From: Coniferiporia sulphurascens
Taxonomy: Eukaryota > Basidiomycota > Agaricomycetes > Hymenochaetales > Hymenochaetaceae
Reading direction: 5' to 3'
Assembly: GCA_002794785.1 (NCBI GenBank)
Contig: NBBA01000009.1
Location: 372,001 to 436,000, forward strand
Length of the DNA: 64,000 bases
Shown here: one piece after another, positions 9,483 to 39,298 of the stretch
How positions within the stretch are numbered: the first letter of the stretch is position 1
How the letters are laid out: the number at the start of each line of letters is the position of its first letter
Notes under the pieces: model-generated
Databases searched by the model: none
The model's input: the letters and a program-made list of their open reading frames with translations, nothing else
Told to the model about the DNA's origin: nothing
Program-made: the position numbers and the translations under genes

Positions 9483-9579
9483 CTGCCCCACTGAGGCTTG
9501 AACTCAGGACCTTATGATCGCCGCCACCTAGGGTGGAACCGTAACAGTCATACGCTCTAACCAACTGAGCCATGGGGCA
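9483..9579 (-). tRNA. tRNA-Asn (anticodon GTT) with a 23-nt intron
   Basis: On the minus strand, a seven-pair acceptor stem (TGCCCCA with TGGGGCA), a D arm with GCTC/GAGC, an anticodon stem TATGA/TCATA and a T arm CTGAG-TTCAAGC-CTCAG fold into a canonical cloverleaf. The loop reads CT-GTT-A, then a 23-nt intron at 9541-9519, then A38, so the anticodon is GTT (Asn). The discriminator base is G, as usual for tRNA-Asn. The intron sits one base 3' of the anticodon, the standard eukaryotic position, and can form a CCACC/GGTGG hairpin. The mature length is 74 nt before CCA addition. It marks the left border of the hydantoin cluster. Confidence 0.93.
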
Positions 9580-9985: not shown

Positions 9986-10766
9986 CTATGAGCGGGATAT
10001 TCTGACTAGTCCAGCGAGTATTTCGATCCCAGCTTTTGCCCCGTCAACGACCTGCACCTCGCCAAGGCCGGCTTCTCTAACGCCCTGCTTGACTAATTCC
10101 TCCATGCCGGCCATTCCAGCACAGCCCAGAAGTAAAACGTCCGCACCCTTTTCTGCGACCTTGGCTGAAGTGCTCTTCATTAGAGTCCCGACCCTGGTGC
10201 GGTCGCCCTCACGCAGCTCCACTACGCCTAGACCGCTTGTTACGACTCCAGCAAAGCGCCCCGAGCTGCCCCCCATGAATGCGCTCACGCCGGAGACGAG
10301 CGTATACTTCATGCCAACCCCGGTCGTAACGACGCCGAAGCGTCGTCCCACGAGGAGGGCATGCGTGATTCCTGCCTCGAAGATACCGATTGCGGGCTTC
10401 TTCGACTGGATCGACGCGAGATGCTCTCGTAGCATATGAATCAAGGGGTGATCGGAAACTACATGGATAGCACCAGAAGTCGGTGAGCAGGAAGAAGCAA
10501 TACAAAGTCCGAGTGCACGCACAACAGCACACCAGAAAGCCATCATATTCATCAATGGCCTTGTCCTGTATCAGTGATTCGTAACAGTATGTCGCGGTCT
10601 GGTTTGCAGTGATTATGTTACTGATTGCTGCAGGAGCATGCGGGGGAGCGGTGAAATAGGAGAGTTGCGCCCCGGGGGGTGTGAGTGGGTCTAATGACTC
10701 CTGAAGACCATCGGTGATGCTTTTCGAAGAATTTGGGTTGATAACGAGAAGGCGGACGGTGGTCAT
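9986..10766 (-). CDS. Hydantoin racemase / Dcg1-family Asp/Glu racemase
   Basis: The protein (238 residues, one intron at 10522-10459) belongs to the Asp/Glu/hydantoin racemase superfamily. Yeast Dcg1 in the allantoin cluster is a relative, and bacterial HyuA-type racemases equilibrate D- and L-5-substituted hydantoins. The N-terminus LLVINPNSS is the family opening. Both catalytic cysteines are present: one in the CC pair at residues 80-81, just before FSDHPL, and Cys194 in LLLGCAGM. FGVVTTGVGMKY (near 122-133) is also typical. The two-cysteine centre suggests an active cofactor-independent racemase. It is divergent from the aldolase gene with 220 bases between starts. Beside a hydantoinase and carbamoylase, hydantoin racemisation is the most likely role, but allantoin racemase activity cannot be excluded from sequence. 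Confidence 0.88.
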
Positions 10767-10986
10767 TTTTTCTCTGCGATTTTGGCCGTTCCCGCTGGGC
10801 CGCCTCGGTTTATCAGCCGCCGTAGGCTCCGGGCATCAGAACCTAATCGGGATTCGCCGACGGGCAGATATCGCCCTCGGCCATTATGCTCATTACATAA
10901 TTTACGCCCCTGCGATTGATTGACACAAACATGGTCCAATATAAATCCGCGAGTGTACGCAGTGAATGCTCATGTTTGACTCGAAA
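10767..10986. promoter_or_regulatory. Divergent promoter of racemase and aldolase genes
   Basis: This 220-bp region is GC-rich and carries GCCGACGG at 10856-10863 and several other CCG/CGG triplets, such as CGCCGTAGGCT near 10818. The same GCCGACG core occurs in the other two divergent promoters of the cluster. The triplets are the half-sites typical of Zn2Cys6 factors. Regulatory use is inferred. Confidence 0.45.
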
Positions 10987-12206
10987 ATGTCTTCTCCCGG
11001 TACTCTCACTCTCACCGCGTCCCAGGATCCGATCCCATCCGCCGCAGCTGCAAAGCAGAATGCAGGAGACCTGGCAAAGAATCCTCTCGAGCGCACCTGG
11101 CGAAGCAATAAAGAAGGCACTGTGCGCCTCCAATCCGTCCCTGACTTTGGTGACGACAAATACGCTGAACGCGAGTGGGTCAGGGTAAGTGTTCACAGTT
11201 TCGCCCCCGTTCTCCCGGGTGTTCACGGAGGCTTGGCGCGAATTTAATTTAGCAACACCTTGCTGCGGCATTCAGGTACTGGGGAAAGCTCGGGTACGGC
11301 GAGGGTGTCTCTGGACACATTACCGTTCGCGACCCTGTTTGGCCCGACCACTACTGGATGTACGAACCGGCTCCTGTGTTCCCGGAGAGATTGAACTGTC
11401 GCTCACACCGCTAAACTACCCCAGGAACCCTTTCGCAGTCCATTTCTCATCCATCAAAGTTTCCGACCTCGTTTTGGTTAGCCCTGACGGGTATGTGACT
11501 GAGCACGGGGCACAGTTGCCTATCAACATGGCAGGCTTCCATATCCATTCTGCCATTCACAAGGCACGTTGTAAATCATAATTTGCCTCCGCATCTTGTG
11601 CTTATGTTAGTGTCCAGGCGCGCCCAGAGATCAAAGCTGCTGCGCACTGTCATTCGATTCACGGGAAATCGTGGTCTGTCTTCGGCAAACCAATCGATAT
11701 TCTCACACAGGACAGCTGCCTCTTCTACGAGAACCTTGGAGTGTACAAAAACTTTGGCGGAATCGTGCTCGCTCCGCAGGAGGGCAAGAACATCGCAGAA
11801 GCCCTCGGACCAAAATCCAAGACGTGCATTTTGCAAAATCACGGTCTGCTCACACGTAAGTAAGGTGTCTGTATGTGTAATTCTATTCACATGCCCTCTT
11901 CTCTCTGTGCAGTTGGACACACAGTCGACGAAGCGGCATACCTATTTTCAGCGCTCGAGAACCAGTGTCGGGTGCAGTTGATGGTTGAGGCCGCGGCTGC
12001 GAACGGCCTTAAGAAGCAAGTCATCGATGACAAGGTACGTGCTGCACGCCGCGTGCTCATGCCTACAACTGATCGATCTGTGACCCGGTGTGTAGGACGC
12101 TCAATTCACAGCGTCGACTATCCAGTTTTGGGAGAACACTTACATCAACTTTCAGCCGGAGTACCGGCTGCTTGTGGAGGAAACCAACGGCGCGTTCCTG
12201 AAGTAG
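10987..12206 (+). CDS. Class II aldolase/adducin-family protein
   Basis: Six exons give 304 residues of the class II aldolase/adducin fold. Members are zinc-dependent aldolases, dehydratases or epimerases acting on small sugar-type or hydroxy-oxo-acid substrates. The core is intact: YWGKLGYGEGVSGHITVRDP, LVLVSPDGYV, INMAGFHIHSAIH, AAAHCHSIHGKSW with the His-x-His metal ligands, and ILQNHGLLTLGHTVDEA. Introns are 11185-11252, 11360-11424, 11564-11617, 11856-11912 and 12035-12095. The third starts with GC rather than GT (exon ...CACAAG|GCACGT); only this reading joins AIHK to ARPEIKAAAHCHS. The gene is similar to fungal proteins annotated as meiotically up-regulated 14-like. Its place in the cluster suggests it handles an oxo- or hydroxy-acid product, which I cannot specify. 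Confidence 0.87.
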
Positions 12207-12877
12207 GATTCTTCTCATGAAATGTATTTTAGGAAAGCGGAGACCAGGGGTCTTCGGAGATATGTTGTCTGCAGTTGTGCAGACGCTAACAGCCCCTACA
12301 AGTTCTGAATCAGCCAATTTTTATATCATAGACAATTGCGACAGCGGTGGCCTGAAAAGACCGGCCAATTGCGGCAATTAAAAGGGGGCGCGCCACCCTG
12401 AGAAGCGCGTCGATCGTTGTTTTTAGACTTTAGAGGAAACGCATCCCGATGCCGCGCTTCTGGATGGAACTGCTGGAAGCATGTGCATCTAAGATGCAAC
12501 GTGCGATTGATGCTTGCCCGCTGAGATCTCTGGGAAGCCCCCTTATTTTCACTCTATTGCCCGCGGCGTGCAGAATACATCAGGCGCAGCGAGTCCTTCT
12601 GGTCCTGGAATGTTTGTGGCCGCCATCGCCGTCTCTGCGTTCTTCTGCCAGAGAATGCGGCTTAAACGTAAACATTAAAACACGTATCTTATCGCAAATC
12701 CAAAGAGCAACGGGCAACAAATGCTGATTCGCAATTTAGCTTCGTAGTCGGATAAATAAACAGGCGCAGGATATGACAGGTACATACATTAAGACGGGAA
12801 CAATCTGTCAGCTTAGGAGGTACGAATTTGCAAATCATAACGGCCAAGACACGGACGTAGCAGAGGGCGAACACCGC
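12207..12877. other. Convergent intergenic region
   Basis: This 671-bp gap lies between the 3' ends of the aldolase and permease genes. An open frame of 92 codons at 12449-12727 has no recognisable feature. No repeat or RNA gene is seen. Confidence 0.45.
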
Positions 12878-15031
12878 CTAAAAATCATTCTTTTCATCAA
12901 CTGACTTCTCCGCCTCTCCGCAACTCTCATCATCTATGACTGATGCCGAGCGCCCATTACATGGAGGGAACACCTTGCTGAAAAATGCATATGACGCAAG
13001 AGAGACTGCGAATCCAACCGGCCACACACAGCTGTACAAATACGACGTGCCGATAGGGATATTCGTGTACCCGCCTACGGCGCGAACAAAGCCGGGCAGG
13101 TTCGGTACGATTCCGAAGACGAATGCGACCATCGCACGCCAGTTCCAACCCGCGTTGTACCAATATTTCGTGTTGTTCGCGCCCTTGCGATAGAGTCCCG
13201 GGACATCGAGGTGACGGTGCGCGACGAGCCAGTAGTGCGCAATCAGGATGCCGCAAACGGGGCCAAGAAAAATGCTGTAGCCGCCAAGGAAGTTTGTGAA
13301 GGTCGTGGCCGAGTTCTGAATTTTCCACGGCACGGTTACAAGCCCGAGAACGGCGCAGATGTACTGGCCGCGGCGGATGTTTATGTATTCTGGGAAAACA
13401 ATCATGAGGTCGTTGGCCACGGCAGTCGAATTAGCGGAAATGTTCGTCGCTATCACACTCAGGGCCCAGCAGAAGGCGCTGAAAAACTGTGCCGCGCGGC
13501 TCTCGAAGAGTGCACTCACTTGGAGCGGAGACCAGGTGCTAACCTAAAACATTTAATAAGCGTGCAGGATCTTACGTTAGGCCATTCGTGTGTGCCATAT
13601 CATAAGCGAAGGCAGTGCGTACCCCATAGATAACCTGTGTAGCCGAAGTGACGACAACGCCAAGAACAGCGCAAAGCGTGACGAGAATGGAAAGAGATAA
13701 TATGTTTGTCCAGACGACTGTCCGTGGACTCTTCGCGTAGCGGGTGAAGTCGGGTATGTTCAGGGCGAGAGTCGCCTTTGGGGCGATGGCGGAAGTCATC
13801 GCAGAGAAGAAGACCACGGCGGCCGGGCTGCCATCCTTAATGGAGGTTCCTTGCTTGAAGATAGGTCCAAAGCCGTGCGCCCTCCCGACTGCCCAGCCTG
13901 AAGGAGAACGACGCATTTGTCAGCGCATGTTTCTGAGGTTTACTTTTACGGGATAGGGTTTAAACAGAAGCTCACCGAATAGTGCAAACCCGAAAAAGGG
14001 CATGAGAATCACCTTTACGAGGAAGAGATATCTCAGCTTCGACATGTGAATCCACAGAAGAGGAAGCTGGATGACGTAGAAAAGCTAGGAACGCCATAAA
14101 TAAGTTGATATAATTAGAATTAATTTTGTCTGCGTTCGCTTCCTTCATCGGAACAAAAATTGGTGTACTTACAAAAAAGCAAAGCAGCATGGATGACGTA
14201 ACACTTGCCTGGAAGAGCACGTCGATCGTCAGTAGAAATTCAAAGGCGCTCGGCCGATCAATGAACGTACCGACTCGGGCAAATGATTGGGAAATCGCTT
14301 GAATGAGGGCCATATCGCCTCAATCATAACTTGCAAGCACTGGCCTCCCTGATAACTCTGCGTCCCAAACCAGAAAATAGCCGCAATGGATCGGCAAAGG
14401 AGCGCAACGTACACCCCGCGCGTGCCAAAGCTTGCCCGTGAGAATATCGGAAACTGTGCAAGATGTGAGCAACTCGCCAATCTGAATGCAAAAATGACAG
14501 GCATACGTTAATGCCGTAGTGGGCGCCGACCCAGCCGTTCAATGCATTGGGAATAGAAATGATGAAGTGACCGAGAAATACAGCAGCTCTGTAATGGCCA
14601 CGTGAGTCATTGTCTGGGTGTGCCTGTCTCCAAAGACGGAAGCTTACATCGTCGTACCGGGCGCCAGTCCAGCCCGGACAGCGGAGGAGGCAACTTGGTA
14701 CTGCGACACACCGAAAGCCTCAGCAACCCAGTAGCCTGGGTGTACGGCAGCCAAGTGAGAACCGATAGTCCCGCCAAGTATGAAAAAAACTCACCAGTAA
14801 GGTGAAACCAATCCCAGCGTCTCAGTTCGCTGCCTAGCTGACCCACAGGGGGAACCGGGACAAGATCAAGCTCGCACTGTAGTGAGCATGTTTTAGGCAG
14901 TGAACCGGACTACTGGGCGAGGGGGGAGAGCTGACCTCAATAAGTTGCCCCCTGCCTTCGGAGTCATTTGACGCAGCGTTGAAAACGACACTCTGTCTTG
15001 GGATGCGAATCCGTTGAACTAGGGAAGCCAT
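12878..15031 (-). CDS. NCS1-family permease (allantoin/uracil/hydantoin-type transporter)
   Basis: A multi-exon gene for a fungal Fur-type nucleobase-cation-symport-1 permease, the family of yeast Dal4 (allantoin) and Fur4 (uracil). Bacterial Mhp1, a hydantoin transporter, is in the same superfamily. Recognisable parts in order: GYWVAEAFGVSQYQVASSAV (TM1), FLGHFIISIPNALNGWVGA, FPIFSRASFGTRGVYVALL, FWFGTQSYQGGQCLQ, IWPSF..NHLPES, WAVGRAHGFGP, LNIPDFTRYAKSPR, then NISANSTAVANDL and INIRRGQYICAVLG, and a final YNAGWNWRAMVAF segment. Exons stay in frame through the full transporter, so it looks intact with about twelve membrane spans. The start at 15031 gives a short cytosolic N-terminus. It shares a 755-bp divergent promoter with the hydantoinase, which argues that its substrate is the hydantoin (or a related ureide) used by that enzyme. 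Confidence 0.9.
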
Positions 15032-15786
15032 GGTCGAGTTGGGGGACTTTGAGCTCGATAAGAGTCAGCTTCGAAGCATTATGTGGCCAGTTTATAGTCA
15101 AATTGAATGTGAGGCCTCGTTTGGATTCTACTAACCTCCGGACCTGCCGCTCGCGCCGTCGGCTAGACTTCCGGTTAAAATTAGCGAGCTGATTGGCTCC
15201 GCAAAGTTTCGCAAGTAGCCGCAGGAAGATAAGGGCCGGAGGTGGCCTCGAGTGTGAATAGATCAGGTCCGAATTACTTGGCCTTTAGGACGTCGAGCTA
15301 CGACCGCAATCATTTCCCCCGGATATAAATGTCGCCCCCGGCTTCGCATGCCAAGCCGAGCGATGGGAAAAGGAAAGGAAAAACATCGTCGAGCCCCAGG
15401 CGTGCTCGCGATTTTTGCCCAGACGCTAGCCATTTTTTGTGAGTACGGCATTGGTCTAGGACCATCAAAATCATAAAAAATGCAATTGCTCGGCGCTCTG
15501 CGCGACGGAAGAGGGAAGCTTCCGACGAGGCTAGATAAGATGACAAATCATTCCTCATCGGGCGTGTGAAATCTACTCCAAATATACACAAAGGCCGCCG
15601 CGATCCGAAGCGCTAGTTTGCCGCGGCAAGAGACGCTCGCCAGTCCGACTTGCCGCTTGGTCCCTGCCAGTGCTGCTATAATCACTGTTTTACTATAACA
15701 ATGTTTTCTATATTTCCCCCTCCCCTCTCATCCGTTTCCCCCATCTCCCCCATCTTTCCCCCTTCTCGCCTTCCCAGCTCATAGTC
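15032..15786. promoter_or_regulatory. Divergent promoter of permease and hydantoinase genes
   Basis: The region contains a perfect 12-bp palindrome TTGCCGCGGCAA at 15618-15629, 158 bases before the hydantoinase ATG, with a second TTGCCGC half at 15650-15656. A GCCGACGG element lies on the minus strand at 15156-15163. A long pyrimidine-rich tract (about 15,715-15,780) directly precedes the hydantoinase start, as is common in fungal leaders. Inverted CCG/CGG triplets are the usual target type of Zn2Cys6 factors. The use of these elements is inferred. Confidence 0.5.
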
Positions 15787-17781
15787 ATGTCGTCGTTCTT
15801 CGACTTCGATATGGTCATTAAGAATGGCATTGTCGTGACCGCCTCCGACGAGTTCCCCTGCGACATCGGAATTAAAGATGGCATCGTCAAGGTCCTTGCT
15901 CGTGATCTTCCCATCACCCCGGGCACCACCGTCATAGACGCAGAGGGTGGCTATGTTACCGTACGTGTTTTCTCTTCGTTCGGCATGCCATTGTATTCGA
16001 CTCATTTATCTGCTTCCATGCCTAGCCGGGAGGCATTGACTCGCAAGTTTCTTATTTCCTTTGTCCCTAGAGACGCGCATTCACCTGATGTACATCCTAC
16101 AGACACGTCCACATCGCCCAGTCCGGTGAGTAGTTATTTCTGGCTGTATTATGGCCCTTCTTTTTTTTTTTTGACGTTTCACTAATTTATGCTATTCAGG
16201 TTCTGGCAAGCATCTCGGTGCGAGATCTGCCGATGACTGGACCTCCGCCACGCGCTCTGCGATTGCCGGTGGCACAACAAGTGTCATTGCATTTGCCGTA
16301 CAGTCCCGTGGAACTTCGATGAATGACGCCGTGGATGAATACCATAAACTAGCGGAGGGCGCTGCCCTATGCGATTACAGCTTCCATGTCATTGTCACCG
16401 ACCCAACCGAGGAACAAATGAAGATTGAATTGCCCCAGCTAGTCGAACGAGGCATTACAAGTGTCAAGGTGCGTGAGAGCGTTTTGACTGGGACGCCCGA
16501 TGCAGGATACTAACTCTTTTGCGCAATCAAGATTTACATGACTTATCCGGCGTTAAAGCTGACGGATGGCCAGATTTTAGACATGCTGTGCTCCGCCCGG
16601 CGGACTGGAGTAACCACAATGGTGCACTGCGAGGTCCGTCTGCATTCATTTTTTATGCTTTACACTGAACTTACGTAGTTCCTCTCACTCCGCAGAACTC
16701 GGACATGATTGATTGGATGTCAAAGTCCCTAGTCGAGCGCGGCATGACTGAGCCTTGGCACCACGGGACCTCGCGCCCAAACATCGTTGAGTCTGAGGCC
16801 ACAAATCGGGCTATCGCACTCGCCGAACTCATGGACGCGCCGATGCTCATCGTACACGTCTCTGACCCATCTTCAATGCGTACAATTAGAAAGGCACAGA
16901 CTCGCCTTCTCCCGATCTATGCGGAAACGTGCCCGCAATATCTCCTCCTAAGTGCTGACAAGATGCGCGCACCAGGCTTTGAAGGGGCCAAATGTGTTTG
17001 TGCCCCTCCGCTTCGCGACGATCCCCAGGACAAGGAGAAGATTTGGGACGGTCTGAGTAATGGCACATTCACTGTTTACTCCAGCGATCACGCGCCGACA
17101 AATTACTATGACGAGCGCGGGAAGCAGGTACGGCACTTACTTCTTTTTTTTGCAAACATGTGTTTTTAAAAAGAGACTTGTGTTCTCAGCTCGGGATGAT
17201 CCACAACCCGAAGAACAACCCAAGAGGCAATTTCCGGGCCATCCCTAACGGACTTCCCGGTGTTGAAACACGAACAGCGCTTTTATGGAGCGAAGGCGTC
17301 CTCAAAGGAAGAATTTCCCAGCAGCGCTTCGTCGAACTCAATTCATCGAATGCCGCGAAATTATGTACGTCTTCGGAATTCCTTTGACCGGCTCTATATC
17401 TGCGGCAGTCTAATTGAGAATTCTTGAAACACATCAGATGGAATGTATCCTCGTAAAGGCACAATTCAACCGGGATCGGATGCGGATCTCGTCATCTGGC
17501 GCCCAGACTCCGCGCGCGGGCCGCACACCGTTATGAATGACAAACTCCACCACAAAGCCGACTATACACCGTATGAGGGCATGGTCCTCGCAGATTGGCC
17601 GCGCTACACGATCTTACGCGGCAAGATTGCGTATGATGGCGAGACAAATGTAGTTACGCTCGCCGTGGGCGAAGGTAGATTTGTCGCGCGCGGTAAGAGC
17701 ACACTGCCTGGTCCGCGCGACCAATGGCTTAGCGCATGGAGGCCCGATGAGGAGTGGGAAGCAGCCCAGAAGCAGAATTAG
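15787..17781 (+). CDS. Dihydropyrimidinase / D-hydantoinase
   Basis: Eight exons give 511 residues, the usual length for dihydropyrimidinase-type cyclic amidases, which hydrolyse 5-substituted hydantoins or dihydropyrimidines to N-carbamoyl amino acids. All metal ligands are visible: His65 and His67 (IDSHVH), the carbamylated Lys161 (SVKIYMTY), His193 (VHCEN), His249 (IVHVSD) and Asp326 (SSDHAP). Further family motifs are GGTTSVIAFAVQ, CPQYLLL and GSDADLVIW. Introns: 15961-16025, 16043-16102, 16126-16199, 16469-16531, 16634-16695, 17128-17189, 17365-17437. The second has a GC donor (GCAAGT); it is required to make the His-x-His motif. Sequence alone does not separate hydantoinase from dihydropyrimidinase; the neighbouring D-carbamoylase, racemase and D-amino acid oxidase favour the hydantoin reading. 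Confidence 0.93.
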
Positions 17782-17843
17782 TAAGGATTTCGTTATCTAA
17801 ACGATATAATAGCGCTACGACGAATGTATTATAAACTCGGCTG

Positions 17844-17956
17844 TACAGTAGTACCTCTCTACAAACATTAATCATGCCTTCAGCGGACATCCCTGCCCTG
17901 TCAAATGAGGTACGCCCGCCTATCGGCAGTAATGGTTATAGAGAGGTTCTACTGTA
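17844..17956. mobile_element. Small MITE with pogo/Tc1-mariner-like ends
   Basis: Terminal inverted repeats start GTACAGTAGTACCTCTCTA (17843-17861) and end in the complement at 17939-17957, 18 of 19 bases matching. The similarity extends inward to about 25 of 28. The element itself would begin CAG (17846) and end CTG (17954), 109 bp, flanked on both sides by TA, the target duplication of Tc1/mariner/pogo transposons. It contains no open frame of note. It sits between the convergent hydantoinase and regulator genes. Confidence 0.7.
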
Positions 17957-18068
17957 CTTACTATACACGACACACCACTAAGTATGTTAGATGTTACAGA
18001 CTGGATCTGGTGATGATCTCTACAATACAACAGATGGAGCAACAGCGACTACCGATAACCGCGCCAGA

Positions 18069-21000
18069 TTACCATCCGGCAGGCCGTGCAAAATTGTAAT
18101 TGGACAGCGTTTCGTCGATGTTCCCGTTCCCATCTATCCCAATATTAGACATCCAGGGGGTCCAGAAGGTCACGCCGTCCATTCCAAGCATGTCCAACTC
18201 CGGTCCCATCCCCTGCAGCTCGGGCGTCTCGCCCAAGTCTGGCGGTGTTTGCCCAGAGGCGTGGGCTGCAGGGACAGGTACCCTGCCGCCATATGCATCC
18301 GCGTAAATCTGTGGAGCTGGCTGGGGCGGTGTGGGCGTGCGATGATCAACCGCACCGGATAAACTAGGAGAGGCGAACCCGTGCTGCGCAACGGGGTTAG
18401 CGGACGTCGGCGTCTGATGGTGGTGGAGATGTGGGCCCTGAGGGTACGCATATGCGGCGGAGGGCGCCATCCCGATTCCCACTTCGGAGTTTATCGCCAC
18501 AGGCGCGGCACGATGTTGGGGCTGCATTGCATGTGTCCCCTGCGCTTGCAGCTGCTGGGCTCGCTGCGGCTGAGCTTGCTGTGGCTGAGCTTGTTGTGGA
18601 TGAGCATGCTGTGGCTGAGTCTGCTGCGGTGACGGACGTTGAGGCGACGAAACTCTGTCATGCTGCCACTGCATCGGTTGGGACGGAAACGGAAACAGCT
18701 GTCCGTCAAGCGCGAGTATCATATCTGTGTTCTCCGGACTCTCCTCCCAAGTCTTCAGACGGCTAATAACCGACGATGCTCGTGTTAGGGCCGGATCGGC
18801 GACGTCCCATTGACCTTGAGCACGAGCATTGCGCAAAAATCCGGTGAGTCGGGAAAGAAGGTGAAGAGCAACCGCGTGTGCATACGGCGCATCAACTAGC
18901 GGCGCCGTACTCCGCGGAGACCATGCGTGCTGACCCGAAGAGTTTGGCTGTGAAGACATTTCAGTATCCACATCCTGCTCCACTTCGCCCGAGCCCAAAG
19001 AAGCGAGGCAGATACGAATGAGCGAGGACAATAATGAGGAGATTATATGTGATGAGTCTGAATGGGGTTATGTTAGCTGCAAAGATGCTCGCATCAGTTG
19101 GGGAAAGAACACGAACAACATAACCAGTATTCTTCAAGGTCGTCATCCGATAGTTTCGTTATGTACTCCACTGCTTCGGAGAAAATCGCCAGAGTATCTT
19201 GATCGGGACGGAATGGTCCGCCAACGCCTGCCTCAGTCTCGATATAGATACGACGAAGCATACAGCGAAAGCACAACACGAGTAAAAGCAACGATTCTGA
19301 AAGCCATCGAATCCCCTGTTCAGATCGTAACACAGAAATGCATAAGACAAGAACGCGATACTTACGGACACCGGGCTGCCTTTCCGCAGGCCTTGCGATT
19401 GTATCCCTCCACTTGAATGCCAGGTCGCTTGTCTCTCTCTCAAGTGCAGCCACCTCCTCCAACTTAACATGCTTTGGCTTTTCCTGGCTCTTAATTGTGC
19501 AAATCTCATTTTGTAAACGCGCGACAATTTCAGCCAGGCGACAAAGAGACGAGAATGCTTGGCAGGACCGAGTCATGTTCGGGTTTTCGACGGCACTCGA
19601 GAGAGAAGATGCAGATGGAAGCGGGATGTCCGTATTGTGGACTTGCATATGCGATGGTCGCGAGTTCAGGAAAGACATCCTAGTCAATCGTTTAAGTCTT
19701 TGCACAATTATAATCTCACTGGACGTGTCTTACCATGCATCGTGGATCTTCAACCCCCACCACAGGCGGATCCGTAAATCCTTCTCCCATGATGGAATAG
19801 ACCACTTCGTTGGGTTCAGGTGAAGACCCAGCAGTTGAGCATGAGCTATGGTCTTAAGATTTGCGTCAATCTTCGCAACAAGATACGAATGCAGCGGACA
19901 CGCTAAAATTCACCTTCGCTAACGTGAGGTAGTTACCTCTCGGATCAACTGTAGGCCGTGCGCCAATGTCCAGAACCGCGGCCGCTATGGTGCTCAATCG
20001 TGGACTATCTATACACGGATCTGTGACATTTGGCGCATGCACAAAACTCCATGCAGCTGCAGACATTTCTCGCAAATCTTTCCTATGATTGAAGGCCGTT
20101 GCATAGATGGCGGATAGAAGATAGGGAGGGAATTCACCCATATGTTTCAAAAGCGGGAGAATAGGGAATGCGGGGTGAACATGGGTAAAATAAATTTGAA
20201 GGAGTTCCTGTCCAACAAATCATAATTAATTAAACGAAAAATACGTGACCTCGGTCGATTGATGGCGATGGTACTGACCTCCTCCTTCGCACGACATGGT
20301 AATGCTTTGAGTAATGATCGAACCCTATAGAGCACCTGCACGCCTGGATCATGTGCAGTCCGGACTAGACAAAACGAATGGGGATGAAAAAGAGGTTAAT
20401 CTGCTAAATTATTTTTGTAACTCACCATCGGGTCTCGGCGCAAATACGACATATACCGGTCTCTGGCTATTCGTCGATATCTGCCTGGCATGCGACGCGC
20501 CGGGATGATTGGCTCCCGTTGATATAGGAAGGAGATCGTCCGTCAGGATAGCAGTGAGGACGTGAGGCTCGTACGATTCAGATGCAGCCAAGTCGAGCGA
20601 GGTCACAGAGTGTGGCGAGGGCTGGTAAGATAACGACCCCGTTCGGAAAGGGCGAGATGCGCGTCATCAACGGCGAAAAGGGCCCGGAACAGGCACAATT
20701 CATCAAAAACGGATGCAAATTGACAGAGTTTAAAAGGTGCGCACATGAATGTTACCACCCACGGCATCAGGGGAGCCAGAGGACATGAGGCCGGTCGTGT
20801 CGTGGTCCTTGCGACGGGCGCCCGCTGATGCCGGCATGGAGGCCGCAGCGGCGGCGTTTGCGAGTGCATGAAGGGCGCCGACGGTCTCCGCCGGTTTTTC
20901 AAGCATGCTAGTGCGGCTCTTGCGCGCAGGCGGGCCCTCTTCAAAAGTGCAATTCTTCTTTGTCTGCCTGTGGGGGTCGGGTGCGCGCGCCGGGCGAGCG

Positions 21001-21312
21001 CCGTGTGGTCAAAGGAATGCACGTAGGGGGCGAGAAGGGCGCTGGGCGTTCACTCACACACACTCGAAGCAGGGCGGACCACCCGGGCCAATCGTACATC
21101 TCGTCTTTGTCCGTCGCTGAGAGGAGAAAAAGTCAGGAAGCGATGGGAGACGCGTCGGGCGAACCGTGCCAAGGCAAGATGATACGCACGCAGGAGTCGC
21201 AGGGGCGGTTCTTGCGCGACCTGAAGGGTCTGCCGCCTGGTTCGAAGTAGTAGTGCGTCGGATGGTGTCTCTGCTGCGCCTGGCTGCTCTCGTCCGTCGG
21301 CTGCGGGGGCAT
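18069..21312 (-). CDS. Zn2Cys6 transcription factor with fungal-specific regulatory domain
   Basis: A multi-exon gene for a binuclear zinc-cluster factor. The DNA-binding domain is built from three exons: CDSC, then RRTKTRC..CFEC, then VQTKKNC. Together they give the exact pattern C-x2-C-x6-C-x8-C-x2-C-x6-C starting near residue 38. The middle part has PHVLTAILTDDLLPIS, LLQIYFTHVHPAFPIL and LWWGLKIHDAW joined to LSFLNSRPSH, the hallmarks of the fungal-specific transcription factor domain. The C-terminal 300 residues are Gln/Pro/His-rich with an AQPQQ repeat and end with FARPAGW, likely an activation region. The start at 21312 gives a short tail before the zinc cluster. Embedded in the cluster and 215 bases downstream of the carbamoylase gene, it is the natural candidate pathway regulator. 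Induction by hydantoins or D-amino acids is inference. Confidence 0.9.
18537..18645 (-). repeat. Gln/Pro/Ala coding repeat in the regulator gene
   Basis: Degenerate tandem units encode repeats such as QQAQPQQAQPQRAQ in the C-terminal region of the zinc-cluster factor. The DNA shows recurring GCTGTGGCTGAGCTTG-like units. Length variation between strains is likely. Confidence 0.6.
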
Positions 21313-21527
21313 GGCCGTCAGATTCAAGAGCTGGCAATCATTTGTCGACTTCAGAGCGCCGTTGCCCTCAGATATAGGTATTGCCTTTTTCGTCACCCAC
21401 TTCCAATCGCGGCTCGTGAGCGCGCCGGCTCGACCCGGGCTATTCAAGAGTGTACCACTATAAATTTCGTAGTCTAACAAAACATTCACAAAAAATCAAA
21501 TACCCGGTGCACAACCTCCAACTGCGC

Positions 21528-22867
21528 TCAGACGTCCACGCATCCATCGGGGGGCTCAACAACACCCTTCTGTGAGACTATCATCCCATAGTGTTCTGGC
21601 CGGCGGTGCTTCTCGAAGCAGAACGTGCGCTCCTTTCCCTGCCTGCAGAAGTGTCGGTCAGCATCGCGGCAATGAAGCATCGAAGCAATCAGAGAAGAAG
21701 CTCACAAGCACGCATCAAGGTCGATTTCAGCTACGACGAGCTCGTCATCGGCCGTCTGGCTTTCTGCCATGATGTGGCCTTCGGGATCAACTATCATGGT
21801 GCCCGCAATGAGCTCAAAGTGGCCGTCATCCCAGCCCGCACGCGCAGATGTAATACAAAACATTGCATTCGTATATGCGTTTGACTGCACGACCACTGAA
21901 AGATATGAAATGAGCCCGGCCGTGAGGAGGGAGGGTGGTCCCACTGACACTTGTGATGGAACATGGCCTCTTCTCTTGCATGCTCTCGTGTGATATTCTG
22001 GTCCCCACCCCATAGTTGCGGCGCGTATGCTGTGGTGTTCTGAAAAAAGAAGGCATCAGTAACGGTGACATGGCTGGGTACTCTAGCAAGCGCTATTTAC
22101 ATAACCAATACACATGATCTCGACGCCCTGCAAGCCATACACCCGCCAGCCCTCGCTCCAGCGGCGGTCATTGCAGATCAACTGACCGATAATAGGGGAT
22201 CCGGATTTGGGCGAGGAGGTAGCACGAGGAACGAGAGAAGGTACCCGGAAAGCCTTGAAGCCAAGGTCCCCCGGTGTAAAGTACCTGATGTTTGTGTCGA
22301 GGGGTTAGAGACCATGCGCGATGCACGCACAGGGGAGCAACGTGCACCTTTTCTCCAGTTGGTTTGTAGTGAGGGGATGTTCGTCGAACGGCTCCATCGT
22401 TCCGGGCAGGTGGACCTTCCGGTACTTGCCGATTACCTTGCCTGACGAGCCACTCACGTAGCACGCAGTGTTGTATGGGACACCTTCAGGGGTCTTTTCC
22501 GCATAGCCAATGGTGACATCGATGTTAAGCTGCCTTGCTCGGGAAAAGAAGCGATCAACGTTGGGGGCGTCGACGACGCCGCCTTCGGAAGACTCGCGCT
22601 CAAAATAGGAGTCGAGTTCGGCTTCATCACGAATAATATATCGGGGGAAGAAGGTGGTGAAAGCTAACTCTGGGAAGACAGCGAGCTGGACGCCTTGCGC
22701 AGCTGCGGCATCTAGAAGGGCGACGAGACGGTCGAGAACGACAGCACGCGGGGTATTGCGACCGATGGCACCAACCTAGGGGATCAAGAATGAAGATAGA
22801 GAGTCTATGAGGGTGTAAAAAAAGGGGGGGCTACCTGGACAGCAGCGACCTTGAGGAGACGAGGCAT
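21528..22867 (-). CDS. N-carbamoyl-D-amino acid amidohydrolase (nitrilase superfamily)
   Basis: Six exons give 346 residues of the nitrilase/carbon-nitrogen hydrolase fold, matching D-carbamoylase (DCase), which converts N-carbamoyl-D-amino acids to D-amino acids, CO2 and NH3. The Glu-Lys-Cys triad is intact: Glu47 (FPELAFTTFFPR), Lys131 (KYRKVHLPG) and Cys191 (LICNDRRWSEGWRVYGLQG). Motifs shared specifically with DCase rather than with nitrilases or beta-ureidopropionase include LEKRYFTPGDLGF, NDRRW and the tail CFEKHRRPEHYG. A roughly 15-residue insertion (about 168-185) precedes the catalytic Cys strand compared with bacterial DCase. Introns: 22834-22776, 22347-22285, 22100-22040, 21948-21896, 21705-21643. 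It is divergent from the D-amino acid oxidase gene, which would use its product. No signal peptide or SKL tail; cytosolic. Confidence 0.93.
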
Positions 22868-23477
22868 GGAGTGAGGTGCGCGGTGCTGGAGGCGCAGGAG
22901 GGCGGACTGATACTGGGAGACTTAAGTATACTGTAATGATATTCTAACTGCGTGCTAGATCCAGCGCATGTTCTCGATCGCATACGTGCGCCCGGCCTTG
23001 CCGGTGGCCAAGGACGGCCGGGACGGCGCATTCCCGGAAGCGGGGCGTATTTTCCACGGTCTGGCGCAGCGTTCTTGAAAAGGACGTAGCCGCGGAAAAT
23101 AAAAGATGTGCGAATAGGCAAGGGCGGACTGGTCTGTTAAAAGCATTAATTAATTCGCAAGGGGGCGGCGTGCTTTAGCTGCGATCGCGGAGTCCGAACC
23201 TGGTCATGCAAGCGATCGGAAGTCGAAGATCCCGAAGCCGCGATCGGCACCGTAGATGACGTTGCAATTCACTCGCCGACGCCGACTCCCGACGCCGGCG
23301 GCACCGACGTGACCCCGCCAGCCGCCGTTCAGCACCGTCGGGGGCATGCGCAGGCAGCGGTAGCCATATAATTCTCATCGTCACGTCCGAACCTCAGAAC
23401 GCCCACTGTCACTGTGATTGAATGCTGATAAGTGCATCCCCCTGTTTAATCTCGATCGCTCACCTTCTCTTCCGCCC
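22868..23477. promoter_or_regulatory. Divergent promoter of carbamoylase and D-amino acid oxidase genes
   Basis: The 610-bp region has an imperfect inverted repeat TTGCCGGTGGCCAA (22998-23011), nested inside CCCGGCC (22991-22997) and GGCCGGG (23016-23022). Near 23,245-23,345 there is a dense set of CCG/CGG elements: CGGCACCG twice, GCCGACGC at 23275-23282 and CACCGTCGG. The first palindrome resembles the TTGCCGCGGCAA of the hydantoinase promoter, so both promoters may be read by the same zinc-cluster factor. The sequence is seen, the use inferred. Confidence 0.5.
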
Positions 23478-24762
23478 ATGTCCGCACAGAGGCCCACCAT
23501 CGTCGTCGGCTGTGGTGTTGTAGGTCTGACAACGGCAATCCGTCTGCTCGAGTCGGAAGGCCATCCCCTCGTGCACATTCTCGCCGGCCGCTTCCCCCTC
23601 GATCCCTTTGATCCAGAGTATGCTTCTTCGGCAGCTGGCGCCCACCATCTCTCGTTCGCCGCCGACCAGGATCTCAGGCAGCGCCGCCTCGATGCTCGCA
23701 CGTTCGAGGTCATGTGGAACGAGCTGGAAACGGAATTGGCCACCGGCGGCGAGCCGACCGGACTCATGAGGGTCACGCAAACGGAATACTACGATGGCGA
23801 CGAAAAGCACCTCGAGTTCCTCGCCGGTCTCCCCGATGTGCATGAACAGTTTCTTTCCCCAAACGCTGTCCTGACATATGCGGTATGCAGTTTGCGGTTA
23901 ATCCCGCGTCTTCGCTCCCCGCGTTTGCCACCCACTCGGTGTCCTTTACGTCTTTGACGGTGGCACCCTCGCACCACCTTCGCCGTCTGCTCGCCCGCTT
24001 CCACCACCTCGGCGGCCAGCTCCACCGCGTTCACCTCTCGTCCCTCCGCGAAGCCCTTACTTACGTCACCGGGCCCGCGCCAAAGGCCGTCGTCGTCTGC
24101 ACTGGTATCGGCTCGCTCCGCCTCGGGGGCGTCCAGGACAATGACATATACCCGACACGCGGTCAGGTTCTCCTCCTCCGTGCGCCCTGGTGCAAGTCCG
24201 GCTGGACATACCAGGTCGGCGCCCTTGACGGCGGAGAGGGCGGCGCACGCACGTATATCATACCCCGGTTCGACGGCCATGTCATTGTCGGCGGGACGAG
24301 GGACGTCGGTGACTGGTCAGTATTACCACAGCTCCCTCTTCCCCCGCCGGCAAAGGGTTTGACCCCCCCTTTTTTTTGAGGTACCGCAATGCACGACCCG
24401 AAACATCGCTCGACATCCTTTCTCGCGCGCTGAAGGTCTGCCCGCTCCTCGCCCCGCCCAGCGTCCGTCTCTCAGGCAGCATCGCCACACCAACCGATTT
24501 GCTTCCGCTCGTCGAGTCAGAGATAGTCGGCTTCCGGCCCTCGCGAAGGTCACTCTCCGGATCCGGCTCGGGCCTGCGGCTCGAGAAGGGCAAGCAGCTA
24601 TCTTCGGACGACGGCCAAGTCGAGGTAGTCTATAATTATGGACACGGGGGTTTCGGCTGGCAGAGCTGTTGGGGTTGCGCAGAAGCTACAGTTGAGCTTC
24701 TGGGCGGCCCGAAGGCGCCTGAGGTGGGCAGAAAACTAAGGAATGCTGCTGGCCTCGTGTAA
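23478..24762 (+). CDS. D-amino acid oxidase (FAD-dependent)
   Basis: Three exons (introns 23838-23890 and 24316-24380) give 388 residues. D-amino acid oxidase converts D-amino acids to 2-oxo acids, NH3 and H2O2. The FAD-binding VVGCGVVGLTTAIRLLE (GxGxxG at 11-16) opens the protein. HSVSFTSLTVAPSHHLRRL, AVVVCTGIGS, IYPTRGQVLLLRAPW, TYIIPRFDGHVIVGGT with substrate-binding Tyr242 and Arg246, DWYRNARPE and NYGHGGFGWQSCWG are all typical. The first intron is needed to join LPD to FAVNPASSLP; unspliced, the frame shifts. The protein ends NAAGLV and lacks the C-terminal SKL peroxisome signal usual in yeast and animal DAAO. It is the terminal enzyme of the inferred pathway and shares a promoter with the carbamoylase. 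Confidence 0.93.
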
Positions 24763-25396: not shown

Positions 25397-28300
25397 TCAC
25401 ATGAAATACATATTTGTGTGATGGTTTTTATGCAGTCCTCCGAAGCCTTCCTTCCACTCCTTGAGATTAAATTCGCCGCCCGAGGATAGGTCGTCGCTGT
25501 AGTTGAGTTCCGAGTTGAAGTGGTAGTCAGCGCGCGCGCATACGATCTAAGGGTGAATAATCAGCACGAAGGGTGTCCCCCAAAATAATCCAACCTCACA
25601 TCTGCATCTGTGGGGGGGCTTAATCTCGTACTCGAAAGAGAAAAAAGACCTGTTACTTACAGTAGCAAGGCGCAGGGATTGAGACGGAGCGTGTTGCTCG
25701 TGCGTAAGTATGGCAAAGTACGAACGAAAACGACTGTAACCTGGGAAGTCCCGGTATTGAGTACTTATTTAACGCAATCCCTTTAATGAGAACTTGCTCG
25801 TCCGAGGTGAAATTATTTTCATCCTTTACCACAATGTAGTGACTTGGCCTCGAGGCTGAGGTAGATTTAGCGCGGTTCGTATTTTTTTGAAGCAATGTCG
25901 TGCACTTACTGCCAAGCAAACCTGCATGGGACTGCAGATAAAAGTCGAATATCCCCGGAGAAATTATGTCCTTATCTACAACAAGTCCGGCGGGAGCATT
26001 GCCGCTTCTGTCCCCTCCATCCTTCGGGAAAAAGCGAACGTGATGGCGTTTTCCCACGACGATGAAGGTGAGTTTTGGTTTGATCCCCTTGTGCTGGCGC
26101 ATTAACTCGAGAAGATCTATATAAAAATGTCAGGTATGTACAATCGCACCAGAATTGTAAAGCACACCAGAGATTTGCTTAATTTCTTCCTCCGCTACCT
26201 GTTGGATCTCTCCTTCAGAAACACCGTCTCTGTAAAAAATGATTTGCTCCGGCCAGACAGGAACGACTGCAATCTTGCCCTTGTTTTCTTTGTTAATATA
26301 TACCCGATACTTGTTGAACATGTCAAGTGCATCCTGTAAGTACAAATCGTCAGCTGTGTACAGTGCAAGATGATTGCCAACTCACTTTAACCATGCCTTT
26401 AATTCCCTGTATAATTTCGAGCCTCGGCTCTTGTATAGTAGAACAAGCAACATATTTTGCAGCCCCAGAATCCACTGAAGAGACGAGAGAGGCTATGGAT
26501 GGGCGCAATACACCGGGGCCAGGGTGGGTAACATCAGCACCTGTTTTCTCGAATTGATTAGCTCATTCTGCAAAGGGCTTGCCTGAACTTCACGTCCCAT
26601 ACCGATTATCATCGTTTTGCCCTGGGAAAACCAGTCGAAGGCCGGACCAGAAGGGACTGTATTGACTCCGCCGAGTTTCGCGTTGATTCTGTCATCAAAT
26701 CTTAGAAACGCTACAAGAAGCAAGATTTATGACCTTTTACTTCAGTATCAAGTTGTTACAGTATTGGTTGTTTGCAGACGTAACCTTGTCCTCGCGCTAC
26801 AGAGAATCCTAGTCAGATTAATCGCAAATGTAAGGCTTGACACTTACGACGCATTGTGTCACCATGCCATGAAGAACATCGCCAAACCGCTTCACATCCT
26901 TTTTTATCGGTGCAGCGTTTTGTGGCAGAATGACAACGATCATAGTCGGGGGAGCTTTAAATTTTTTCTGCATCCATCCGCAGATACTTCCGAGTTCCTA
27001 AAAAAATAAATTTTAACAGAACGGATGAACAATCTCCAATGGGACACACATTCTGTACTTGAGCCGGGTTGGCTCGCTCGATTTCTGGATCATTTCTGAC
27101 GACTTCCAGAGAATTATTGTCAGGACAAGTTCCCGTGGAAGCGAAAGAATGTATACCTATGCCTGGGGTACAGTTGGATGGAAGGTCAGAAAGGGATGTA
27201 CTTATCGCGCTCACCAGCAGACGCCATCGCTTCCTTTAGAGATTTTATGAAACGTTGAACAGAATCCTTTTCAATAATCGCAAAGCAAACAACCGCCCAC
27301 GTCTCGATAGGCATTGGATCCTTGAGCCGTCGTCCTACCATGTTCCAGGAACCGGACTTTGGCTACAGGGGATGACGTTGCGTAAGAGCTATCACGATAT
27401 GATACGAAGGGATTCACCTTCTGCGGCGGGACATTTCCTCCATAAGACATCGCAGGAGGATCTAAAATACGACCACGAACAGTCATCGGAGTCGACGAAA
27501 TGTGCAGGCCAGCCTGCATGACAAAAGGAGAGGTTTCGATTTGCAAACGCTTCGATATTCTCTTTATGTCAAAGTGTACAATTAAGCAGAGATTTTCACA
27601 AACCTGCATCCCGTTTTGAATTACCGCAAGCCTTTCGGCAGGTTTCTTTTTTGAGAACGCTAGCATCCTCGCCATTAGCTCAGGCGATGCCCTCTTTTTA
27701 TAGAGCTGCCCTTCTTTAATGTCGCAAAACTCGAATGGGATAACTTCCCCCCGAGTCGTGCAAATGCCAGGCATCTTTGGGAACCTCGTCTCTAGATGGT
27801 GATGTCGCCTGAAGTAATCCTGATGCTTGTAAGTACCACTCCAGCAGACTTGACTGGTGAGCGCTATCCACCTGAACAGTGATGTTGCCATCCTTAGTGG
27901 TAAATTCGTAAAATCCGGCGTTTGGCACGAGAGATTTGATCGTCCGCAGGCGGTCTTTGGGTTTTTGGATGACTTGGACCCCAGAGAGGATCATTTTCAT
28001 GCGAGACCATTTATCATTTCCTTCACTGAGTCCAGAGAGTTCCCGGCTATCGCGCATGTTGAAAAAGGCTAAAAGAAATTTTATCAGGGGCCCTCGCCCA
28101 AACCTACGAATCAAAAGAGACATCAAAATGTCTTTTCCTTGAGAACAGAAATTATCGAAAGCGCATACATCACGCTGCTCGCCATGTCAACATTTACAAG
28201 TAACCTTCCCGGAGACGGTCTTACACTCCTATAAACATTTTAATTTTCGTGATTTCTAAGGTTAAAGGAAGGGACGAACTGGAAGAAGCCCCGCCAAATC

Positions 28301-38322: not shown

Positions 38323-39298
38323 ACGACTGCAGGCCGAGAATAGAACACGAACGCCAGGATTTTGATAGTGGAGCGAAGTTCATTTCCTGGGATCACGCGG
38401 TAATCTACGAAGAAGAAACGAAGCAAAGACGATTTGATGTAGCCCACGTCAGCTTACTGTTGTTCTTTTATGTCGTTTTTCTTTCTCACCTCTTTTCTTT
38501 CCTCCGTTCATTCTCCCTTTCTTATCGTTTCTTTACTTCTTTTTTTTTGTGTCAATTTGCACCGCTTCGCCGTGTTTGTCTGCATCCCTTACGCGCTACG
38601 ACTTACTATCTACTTGCCGCCTGTACTGAGCAGAGTACCTGCATTCGCTGATCGTCGGGAACCGACAAAATAAAAGAAAGCGGTGCTGTATTTCCCATTC
38701 GCTGGAGGCATGCTCATCACACGTTGCAACCAGGATGGGTTATCCATCACATCACATCGGTCTGATACCTATGTCTGGTCTTCGCTGAAGGCGGTGTTTG
38801 TTGGACTGTTGGGCACCCACCGTCCGTTCTGGGCTGCCGTGGCTGGCATCCGGGACGAGCGAGGGCCCGCAGAAAGGAGTCCAGGCTGGACGTCGGCCCA
38901 TGTACCTCCACTCGGTGGGATTCACTGTTGTCCGCCCGCATGCCCGAGTCGCGTGCTGATGAGAGCGTTCACATTGAATGCGTCCAGAACTCTCCCGCCC
39001 ATGATCTATCGCCAACAATGCGACCCGTCGAGGGCCACAGATGCGGAAGCCACCGCTGGGCCGCTGGCCGGGCGGGCCACGCTACCGTGCTTAAAAGCCA
39101 ACTCTCCAGATGTCCTCCCCCTGCTACTTACCTTCTGATCCGAGCGAGCGCCCGCCGACCCGCCTAGCAAGCTCGCCTACCTGCCTCTGCCCCTTGCTGC
39201 CTCGTCGCCATCTCGCTCCCCCGCTCTTCTCTCCTTGTTCTGTCTCCTGGCACGCCCGAGTCTGCCATCATTCCCAACGCGCGAAGCTACAGTCTATC
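38323..39298. other. Intergenic region of nearly 1 kb
   Basis: The first 300 bases are strongly T/C-rich (38,450-38,570), matching an eIF4A 3' untranslated region. An open frame of 151 codons at 38683-39138 has no known motif and I do not call it. The 200 bases before the phosphatase start are C-rich leader. Confidence 0.45.

What the first reader, a model, noticed from the sequence alone, without database searches (positions are those of the whole stretch)
9986..24762. A complete hydantoin-utilisation gene cluster in a basidiomycete
Seven adjacent genes encode every step of a coherent pathway: NCS1 permease, hydantoin racemase with both catalytic Cys, D-hydantoinase/dihydropyrimidinase with all metal ligands, nitrilase-fold D-carbamoylase with intact Glu47-Lys131-Cys191, and D-amino acid oxidase, together with a Zn2Cys6 regulator and a class II aldolase. 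Bacterial hyu operons combine racemase, hydantoinase and carbamoylase. A eukaryotic version with a dedicated oxidase and its own regulator is not one I know to be described. All genes carry fungal introns, so this is not a recent bacterial import or contamination. Inferred result: hydantoin ring nitrogen and carbon feed into NH3 and 2-oxo acids.
Basis: partly seen in the sequence, partly recalled or inferred. Interest (0 to 1): 0.93.

Follow-up and report, generated by a model that had tools for sequence, protein, structure and literature searches.

The report
Fungal hydantoin-breakdown gene cluster with oxidase
A fungus carries seven neighbouring genes, most of which look like successive steps for breaking ring-shaped nitrogen compounds (hydantoins) down to D-amino acids and then oxidising them, and the core of this set sits together in many other fungi.

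Summary
In detail: seven intron-bearing genes lie exactly at 9986-24762 and their families are confirmed. Six form three head-to-head pairs. The core is conserved: among basidiomycete species that could be paired, carbamoylase and oxidase are linked in 16 of 19, carbamoylase and hydantoinase in 10 of 13, hydantoinase and oxidase in 13 of 16. Racemase and carbamoylase are fused in 31 of the 120 best carbamoylase rows.

Two readings change. The oxidase is of the D-aspartate oxidase lineage (9vpf 1.5e-100 against 2.8e-30 for yeast DAAO); 19 of 21 cluster-linked relatives keep the acid-binding arginine, but the window's copy has Tyr227. So natural substrates may be acidic hydantoins, not benzyl- or methylhydantoin. 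The hydantoinase's best solved relative is a yeast dihydropyrimidinase, but no dihydropyrimidine dehydrogenase was seen in the genome, and allantoinase-like and allantoicase hits lie elsewhere.

Substrate, regulation and the aldolase's role are untested. I rate it an oxidase-coupled eukaryotic variant of the bacterial hyu pathway.

The parts
9986..10766 (-). Asp/Glu/hydantoin racemase family protein, 238 aa, exons 10523-10766 and 9986-10458; Cys81 and Cys194
   Evidence: model; PF01177 2.7e-43; only locus of the family hit in the genome; 34-39% identical to the racemase half of 31 fused proteins
10767..10986 (.). divergent promoter region racemase/aldolase
   Evidence: gene models; no shared-word enrichment with the other two promoters
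10987..12206 (+). class II aldolase/adducin family protein, 304 aa, 6 exons (one GC-AG intron); role unknown
   Evidence: PF00596 8.7e-45; about 50% identical relatives on C8 and C1
12878..15031 (-). NCS1 nucleobase/allantoin/hydantoin-type permease, 538 aa, 9 exons
   Evidence: PF02133 6.5e-105; only solved relatives are Mhp1 hydantoin permease, 3.4e-16; further family hits on C18, C1, C8, C3
15032..15786 (.). divergent promoter region permease/hydantoinase
   Evidence: gene models
15787..17781 (+). hydantoinase/dihydropyrimidinase (cyclic amidohydrolase), 511 aa, 8 exons (one GC-AG intron); His65, His67, Lys161, His193, His249, Asp326
   Evidence: TIGR02033 495.5 bits, cut-off 393; best solved relatives 2fty 2.1e-134 and 1nfg 3.7e-103; no second copy beyond a weak C20 exon
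18069..21312 (-). Zn2Cys6 fungal transcription factor, 859 aa, 10 exons modelled by eye
   Evidence: model; PF00172 1.2e-4 and PF04082 2.4e-10
21528..22867 (-). N-carbamoyl-D-amino acid amidohydrolase-like protein, 346 aa, 6 exons; Glu47-Lys131-Cys191
   Evidence: PF00795; 1fo6 4.7e-67; all genome hits here; 96% identical to Coniferiporia weirii M0805_008964
22868..23477 (.). divergent promoter region carbamoylase/oxidase
   Evidence: gene models
23478..24762 (+). D-aspartate-oxidase-type FAD oxidase, 388 aa, 3 exons; Tyr227, Arg257, Arg314 at the human Arg216, Arg237, Arg278 positions
   Evidence: PF01266; 9vpf 1.5e-100; tree and residues; 91% identical to C. weirii M0805_008965, the next tag after its carbamoylase

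Best explanation
A catabolic gene cluster for 5-substituted hydantoins (or for N-carbamoyl-D-amino acids derived from them) that ends in oxidation of the D-amino acid. Proposed order: the NCS1 permease takes up the hydantoin; the racemase interconverts its enantiomers; the metal-dependent hydantoinase opens the D-ring to an N-carbamoyl-D-amino acid; the Cys-Glu-Lys amidohydrolase removes the carbamoyl group as CO2 and NH3; the FAD oxidase turns the D-amino acid into a 2-oxo acid, NH3 and H2O2; the Zn2Cys6 protein is the likely local activator. Because the oxidase is of the D-aspartate oxidase lineage, the amino acid in most basidiomycetes is probably acidic (D-Asp or D-Glu, from hydantoin-5-acetate or hydantoin-5-propionate); in the window's own lineage Tyr227 may have shifted this. 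Shown: gene structure, families, catalytic residues, linkage of three enzymes across fungi, racemase-carbamoylase fusion. Inferred: every reaction, the order, the substrate, the regulation, the aldolase's part.
For: Families and residues. Linkage in public genomes (from the best 120 rows each): carbamoylase-oxidase 16 of 19 species (nine with locus tags 1-3 apart), carbamoylase-hydantoinase 10 of 13 (four with tags 2-5 apart), hydantoinase-oxidase 13 of 16 (five with tags 1-4 apart); the others by equal contig length. Racemase-carbamoylase fusion in 31 of 120 rows. In the best 80 of 580 bacterial relatives a racemase lies in the fetched flanks in 33; a hydantoinase-profile hit in 28, but strong (over 500 bits) in only 6. 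The window's hydantoinase and 23 basidiomycete rows form a clade at 99 that excludes the yeast dihydropyrimidinase. Acid-binding Arg in 19 of 21 cluster-linked oxidases, 0 of 12 in the other clade. PF14691 hits only a glutamate synthase frame; allantoinase-like and allantoicase hits elsewhere.
Against: No activity or expression data. The window's oxidase has Tyr in place of the acid-binding Arg. Armillaria, Stereum and Rhodotorula toruloides have carbamoylase and hydantoinase rows but no oxidase row among the best 120; in Kwoniella shivajii and Meredithblackwellia the listed oxidase is on another contig. The cluster label is not one clade on the oxidase tree, 14 changes. No promoter word shared above shuffles. 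Agrobacterium His144 is Gln here. Equal contig length (up to 13 Mb) is weaker evidence than neighbouring tags. No control was run for how often a racemase falls by chance in such bacterial flanks. The hydantoin-5-propionate amidohydrolase model is failed (207 bits, cut-off 650).
Confidence: 0.68

Rival explanations
1. Reductive pyrimidine degradation: permease imports uracil or dihydrouracil, the amidohydrolase is a dihydropyrimidinase, the nitrilase-fold enzyme a beta-ureidopropionase; racemase and oxidase are bystanders.
For: Best solved relative of the amidohydrolase is chain 2fty, dihydropyrimidinase (Lachancea kluyveri, recalled), 2.1e-134; NCBIfam names the best models dihydropyrimidinase, PRK13404 622.8 bits (cut-off 647) and TIGR02033.
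Against: The amidase is far closer to D-carbamoylase (4.7e-67) than to chains named beta-ureidopropionase (7e-11 and 1.4e-5). The only PF14691 site is a glutamate synthase frame (intron-split genes could be missed). Racemase fusion and oxidase linkage make no sense for achiral intermediates. The yeast enzyme lies outside the 24-row clade, but on a long branch.
Confidence: 0.1
2. A ureide (allantoin) cluster like the yeast DAL cluster: allantoin racemase, NCS1 allantoin permease and an allantoinase-like enzyme.
For: Best solved racemase relative is an allantoin racemase, 1.2e-15; permease resembles allantoin permeases (215 bits, cut-off 620). The yeast DAL cluster holds a cyclic amidohydrolase, an NCS1 permease and the racemase-family gene DCG1 (recalled).
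Against: Allantoicase hits lie on contig C3 and an allantoinase-like exon (my reading of its translation) on C20; the amidohydrolase scores 227.5 on the allantoinase model (cut-off 358) against 495.5 on D-hydantoinase (cut-off 393). Carbamoylase and D-oxidase have no place in that route.
Confidence: 0.06
3. D-aspartate/N-carbamoyl-D-aspartate scavenging or detoxification in which hydantoins are minor: the core is carbamoylase plus oxidase, and the cyclic amidohydrolase handles dihydroorotate-like rings.
For: Carbamoylase and oxidase are the pair with most neighbouring tags; the oxidase lineage holds the D-Asp enzyme of Vanrija humicola (9vpf = P0299); in Cryptococcus gattii the annotated D-aspartate oxidase CgDao1 showed starred activity on D-Asp alone of the substrates tabulated (PMC4489021, passages).
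Against: Does not need a racemase, yet racemase and carbamoylase are fused in other fungi; window oxidase has lost the acid-binding Arg.
Confidence: 0.12

Closest known systems
Bacterial hyu D-hydantoin operons (hydantoin racemase, D-hydantoinase, D-carbamoylase)
   Same: Same three enzyme families side by side; of the best 80 bacterial relatives, 33 loci have a racemase hit and 6 a strong hydantoinase hit (over 500 bits; 22 more at 28-165 bits are probably other cyclic amidohydrolases)
   Different: Fungal genes are intron-bearing, in divergent pairs, with a fungal regulator, an NCS1 permease and a D-aspartate-type oxidase; the oxidase and NCS1 profiles hit 0 of the 80 bacterial loci (15 of the 80 are shorter than 12 kb). 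One bacterial locus (L036) has ABC transporter genes between carbamoylase and hydantoinase
Agrobacterium-type N-carbamoyl-D-amino acid amidohydrolase (1fo6)
   Same: Full-length match 4.7e-67; Glu47, Lys127, His129, Cys172, Arg175, Arg176 positions kept (alignment; positions counted by me, roles recalled)
   Different: His144 position is Gln in the window, in 119 of 120 listed relatives and in 75 of 80 bacterial relatives; insert before the Cys strand
D-aspartate oxidase of Vanrija (Cryptococcus) humicola (9vpf)
   Same: Same lineage, 49% identical; alpha-carboxylate Arg kept
   Different: Tyr227 replaces the side-chain-carboxylate Arg; Arg257 where the Vanrija enzyme has Met
Lachancea kluyveri dihydropyrimidinase (2fty)
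   Same: Same family and metal-ligand motifs
   Different: Outside the 24-row clade of the window's enzyme (long branch)
Yeast DAL allantoin cluster (recalled)
   Same: Clustered cyclic amidohydrolase, NCS1 permease and racemase-family gene
   Different: Allantoinase-like and allantoicase hits of this fungus are elsewhere; carbamoylase and D-oxidase instead

Membership tests
hyu-type D-hydantoin pathway cluster | racemase, cyclic amidohydrolase and D-carbamoylase encoded together | tested here: met
hyu-type D-hydantoin pathway cluster | catalytic residues intact in the three enzymes | tested here: met
   (residue roles recalled)
hyu-type D-hydantoin pathway cluster | conserved linkage in relatives | tested here: met
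   for carbamoylase, hydantoinase and oxidase; racemase only by fusion in other fungi
hyu-type D-hydantoin pathway cluster | turnover of 5-substituted hydantoins | not testable with these tools
   no assay
N-carbamoyl-D-amino acid amidohydrolase | Glu-Lys-Cys triad and Cys-Asn-Asp-Arg-Arg motif | tested here: met
   motif in 120 of 120 relatives
N-carbamoyl-D-amino acid amidohydrolase | release of D-amino acid from N-carbamoyl-D-amino acid | not testable with these tools
   no assay; His144 of the Agrobacterium enzyme is Gln here
D-aspartate oxidase | phylogenetic placement with the Vanrija enzyme | tested here: met
   57-row group at 100
D-aspartate oxidase | Arg binding the side-chain carboxylate (human Arg216; role from PMC8260693, passages) | tested here: not met
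   Tyr227 in the window; Arg in 19 of 21 cluster-linked relatives. So the window enzyme is called D-aspartate-oxidase-type, not D-aspartate oxidase
reductive pyrimidine pathway | dihydropyrimidine dehydrogenase in the genome | tested here: not met
   the one PF14691 site is a glutamate synthase frame (my reading of the translation); exon-wise search
reductive pyrimidine pathway | third enzyme is a beta-ureidopropionase | tested here: not met
allantoin (DAL-type) cluster | allantoinase and allantoicase in the cluster | tested here: not met

The most novel reading that the evidence does not exclude
Dikarya hold an old, conserved pathway for acidic hydantoins (hydantoin-5-acetate and/or hydantoin-5-propionate): racemase, hydantoinase and D-carbamoylase feed a dedicated D-aspartate-type oxidase, peroxisomal in red yeasts (10 of 21 cluster-linked oxidases, all Microbotryomycetes by recalled placement, end in a PTS1-like tripeptide), so that damaged or cyclised acidic amino acids return to oxaloacetate or 2-oxoglutarate; the Hymenochaetales lineage re-tuned the oxidase by Arg-to-Tyr (His in Phellinidium) for another side chain.
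Probability: 0.33. Interest if true: 0.75.

Novelty: new variant of a known kind. Interest (0 to 1): 0.62.

Why it matters
Hydantoin utilisation is known (recalled) as a bacterial trait exploited to make D-amino acids. A conserved fungal version coupled to an oxidase would give eukaryotic racemases, hydantoinases and D-carbamoylases for biocatalysis. It would give a biological setting to fungal Asp/Glu/hydantoin racemases: one survey counts 17 transfer events in this family, 15 of them into fungi, and found no clear role for the Candida glabrata one (PMC5169069, passages). And it offers a concrete test of what natural hydantoins fungi meet.

Tried and rejected
Promoter motif: 7-mers shared by the three divergent promoters, 3 against a mean of 2.5 in 60 shuffles; 8-mers 0 against 0.17; spaced CGG/CCG pairs gave nothing I could use. 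Rejected.

Charge in the hydantoinase gate loops as a sign of acidic substrates: Lys170 in 24 of 28 rows of the basidiomycete set but also in 47 of 93 others. Not specific; not used.

Allantoin and pyrimidine readings: see rivals. Contamination or recent bacterial import: rejected; all seven genes have introns, and in a tree of 50 chosen rows the 33 fungal carbamoylases are one side of a branch at 100.

Cautions: the trees are quick searches on chosen rows; 2fty and 1nfg are long branches. In one search I used only named basidiomycete rows, for the oxidase only P0241-P0306; species in one list only could not be paired. Fistulina has a hydantoinase row and an oxidase row of the second clade on different contigs. 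ARAGORN in bacterial mode found no tRNA; Rfam found one. Literature searches; one search gave nothing on the organism.


Full report
What is there. The window lies on contig C9 (372001-436000) of an unnamed 39.3-Mb genome in 31 contigs. The nearest public proteins are from Coniferiporia weirii, 96% for the carbamoylase and 91% for the oxidase, so the source is probably a Hymenochaetales fungus close to it (order recalled). I spliced them by eye: 37 introns in all, 43-141 bases, 35 GT-AG and two GC-AG (aldolase, hydantoinase). Six genes form three head-to-head pairs (racemase/aldolase, permease/hydantoinase, carbamoylase/oxidase); the regulator lies between hydantoinase and carbamoylase. A SOR/SNZ (pyridoxine-type) exon is upstream and an Argonaute-like gene downstream (the Argonaute matches are below Pfam's cut-offs), which sets the borders.

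Families. Pfam confirms six proteins and the regulator. The carbamoylase matches N-carbamoyl-D-amino acid amidohydrolases over its whole length at 4.7e-67; the next families start at 1.2e-11, and chains named beta-ureidopropionase are at 7e-11 (3ivz, also named nitrilase) and 1.4e-5 (6ftq). The hydantoinase passes the NCBIfam D-hydantoinase/dihydropyrimidinase model (495.5 bits, cut-off 393), stays just under its best-scoring model PRK13404 dihydropyrimidinase (622.8, cut-off 647) and fails the allantoinase (227.5, cut-off 358) and hydantoin-5-propionate amidohydrolase (207.4, cut-off 650) models; by sequence its best solved relative is a yeast dihydropyrimidinase, then bacterial D-hydantoinases. 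The racemase is only distantly like solved allantoin and hydantoin racemases (1.2e-15 and weaker), with both Cys in place. The permease's only solved relatives are the hydantoin permease Mhp1 (3.4e-16). The oxidase matches 9vpf at 1.5e-100 and the D-amino acid oxidase 1c0i (Rhodotorula, recalled) at 2.8e-30; 9vpf is identical to P0299, the Vanrija humicola D-aspartate oxidase.

Copy number. Racemase family, hydantoinase and carbamoylase give hits only here in the genome, apart from a weak exon on C20 (32% identical) that reads to me as an allantoinase. The oxidase has partial relatives on C11, the aldolase on C8 and C1, and the permease family on C18, C1, C8 and C3. Allantoicase hits are on C3. 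The only PF14691 site is in a reading frame that I recognise as glutamate synthase, so no dihydropyrimidine dehydrogenase was seen; these searches go exon by exon and could miss a fragmented gene.

Conservation. I paired named basidiomycete species present in two lists. Carbamoylase-oxidase: 16 of 19 share a contig length, nine with tags 1-3 apart (for example M0805_008964/008965 in C. weirii, JCM10207_002955/002954 in Rhodosporidiobolus poonsookiae, I303_104138/104135 in Kwoniella dejecticola); two do not (Kwoniella shivajii, Meredithblackwellia) and one pair is from different strains. Hydantoinase-oxidase: 13 of 16 linked (five with tags 1-4 apart), of which one (Cryptococcus sp. DSM 104549) only by a 4-Mb contig; two not; one not comparable. 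These species span Hymenochaetales, Agaricales, Tremellomycetes and Microbotryomycetes (placement recalled). Equal contig length is good but not perfect evidence of one contig, and on long contigs says little about distance. Against it: Armillaria, Stereum and Rhodotorula toruloides have carbamoylase and hydantoinase rows but no oxidase row among the best 120. Of the 120 best carbamoylase rows 31 are fusions with a racemase domain; 25 are named, all ascomycetes as far as I know, and six are unnamed. The fused racemase aligns to the window's at 34-39%. In a tree of 50 chosen rows the fungal carbamoylases are one side of a branch at 100 and the basidiomycete ones a clade at 99. In a tree of 53 chosen hydantoinase rows the window's enzyme and 23 basidiomycete rows, including every cluster-linked basidiomycete row in it, form a clade at 99 that excludes the yeast dihydropyrimidinase; four other basidiomycete rows (Suillus, Gloeophyllum, two Tricholoma) fall outside it (long-branch caution).

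The bacterial counterpart. Of the best 80 of 580 bacterial relatives, 33 loci carry a racemase hit. A hydantoinase-profile hit occurs in 28, but only six are strong (over 500 bits: L036, L101, L102, L103, L105, L106); the other 22 score 28-165 bits and are probably other cyclic amidohydrolases. No locus was hit by the fungal oxidase or NCS1 profiles (many flanks are cut by contig ends, and no chance control was run). Looked at one by one: Robbsia L036 has carbamoylase, ABC transporter genes, hydantoinase; Bradyrhizobium L105 has hydantoinase A/B, a class III aminotransferase and an AMP-binding enzyme upstream of carbamoylase, racemase, hydantoinase. The oxidase therefore looks like a fungal addition; other kinds of bacterial D-amino acid oxidoreductase were not searched for.

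The oxidase and the substrate. On a 69-row tree the window's enzyme, the Vanrija enzyme and all 21 cluster-linked oxidases fall in one group of 57 at 100, apart from a second group of 12 that includes another C. weirii copy. Within the 57 the cluster-linked rows are not one clade (14 changes), partly because linkage could not be read for many rows. Human D-aspartate oxidase binds the side-chain carboxylate with Arg216 and the alpha-carboxylate with Arg278, with Arg237 as gate (PMC8260693, passages). The Arg216 position is Arg in 19 of 21 cluster-linked rows, 26 of 35 other rows of the group and 0 of 12 in the second group; the Arg278 position is Arg in all 68 relatives and the window. In the window the first is Tyr227, as in C. 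weirii and Phellopilus, and His in Phellinidium. So in most basidiomycetes the cluster points to an acidic D-amino acid, and in this lineage the pocket has changed. Ten of 21 cluster-linked oxidases, all from red yeasts and kin, end in PTS1-like tripeptides; the window's does not (the PTS1 pattern is recalled).

A smaller difference: Agrobacterium His144 is Gln here, in 119 of 120 listed relatives and in 75 of 80 bacterial relatives, so the enzyme belongs to a Gln subfamily whose substrate is not fixed by the Agrobacterium precedent.

Novelty. Open-access searches listed no paper on a fungal hydantoin cluster; I judged from titles and abstract starts of the rows listed, and read passages of PMC12735256, PMC8260693, PMC4489021 and PMC5169069 only. 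Subscription papers are not covered. I rate it a new variant of a known kind: hyu chemistry in a conserved eukaryotic cluster with its own oxidase. Not shown: any reaction, any induction, the aldolase's role, and racemase, permease or regulator linkage in other basidiomycetes.

Noticed in passing
window 8045-8464 +: Exon of a SOR/SNZ (pyridoxine-type) gene just upstream of the cluster (PF01680 1.9e-57)
   Followed up: partly
window 9483-9579 -: tRNA gene of 97 bases, so probably with an intron, between the SNZ gene and the racemase (Rfam RF00005; ARAGORN in bacterial mode missed it)
   Followed up: no
window 27271-27990 -: Argonaute-like gene (weak ArgoL2 and PAZ matches, below Pfam cut-offs) downstream of the oxidase
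   Followed up: no
window 39095-39802 + and 36946-37818 +: Dual-specificity phosphatase (PF00782) and DEAD-box helicase (PF00270) exons
   Followed up: no
window 11564-11617 and 16043-16102: Two GC-AG introns, one each in the aldolase and hydantoinase genes
   Followed up: no
L105 1247-7891: Bradyrhizobium locus with hydantoinase A/B, class III aminotransferase and an AMP-binding enzyme next to carbamoylase, racemase and hydantoinase
   Followed up: no
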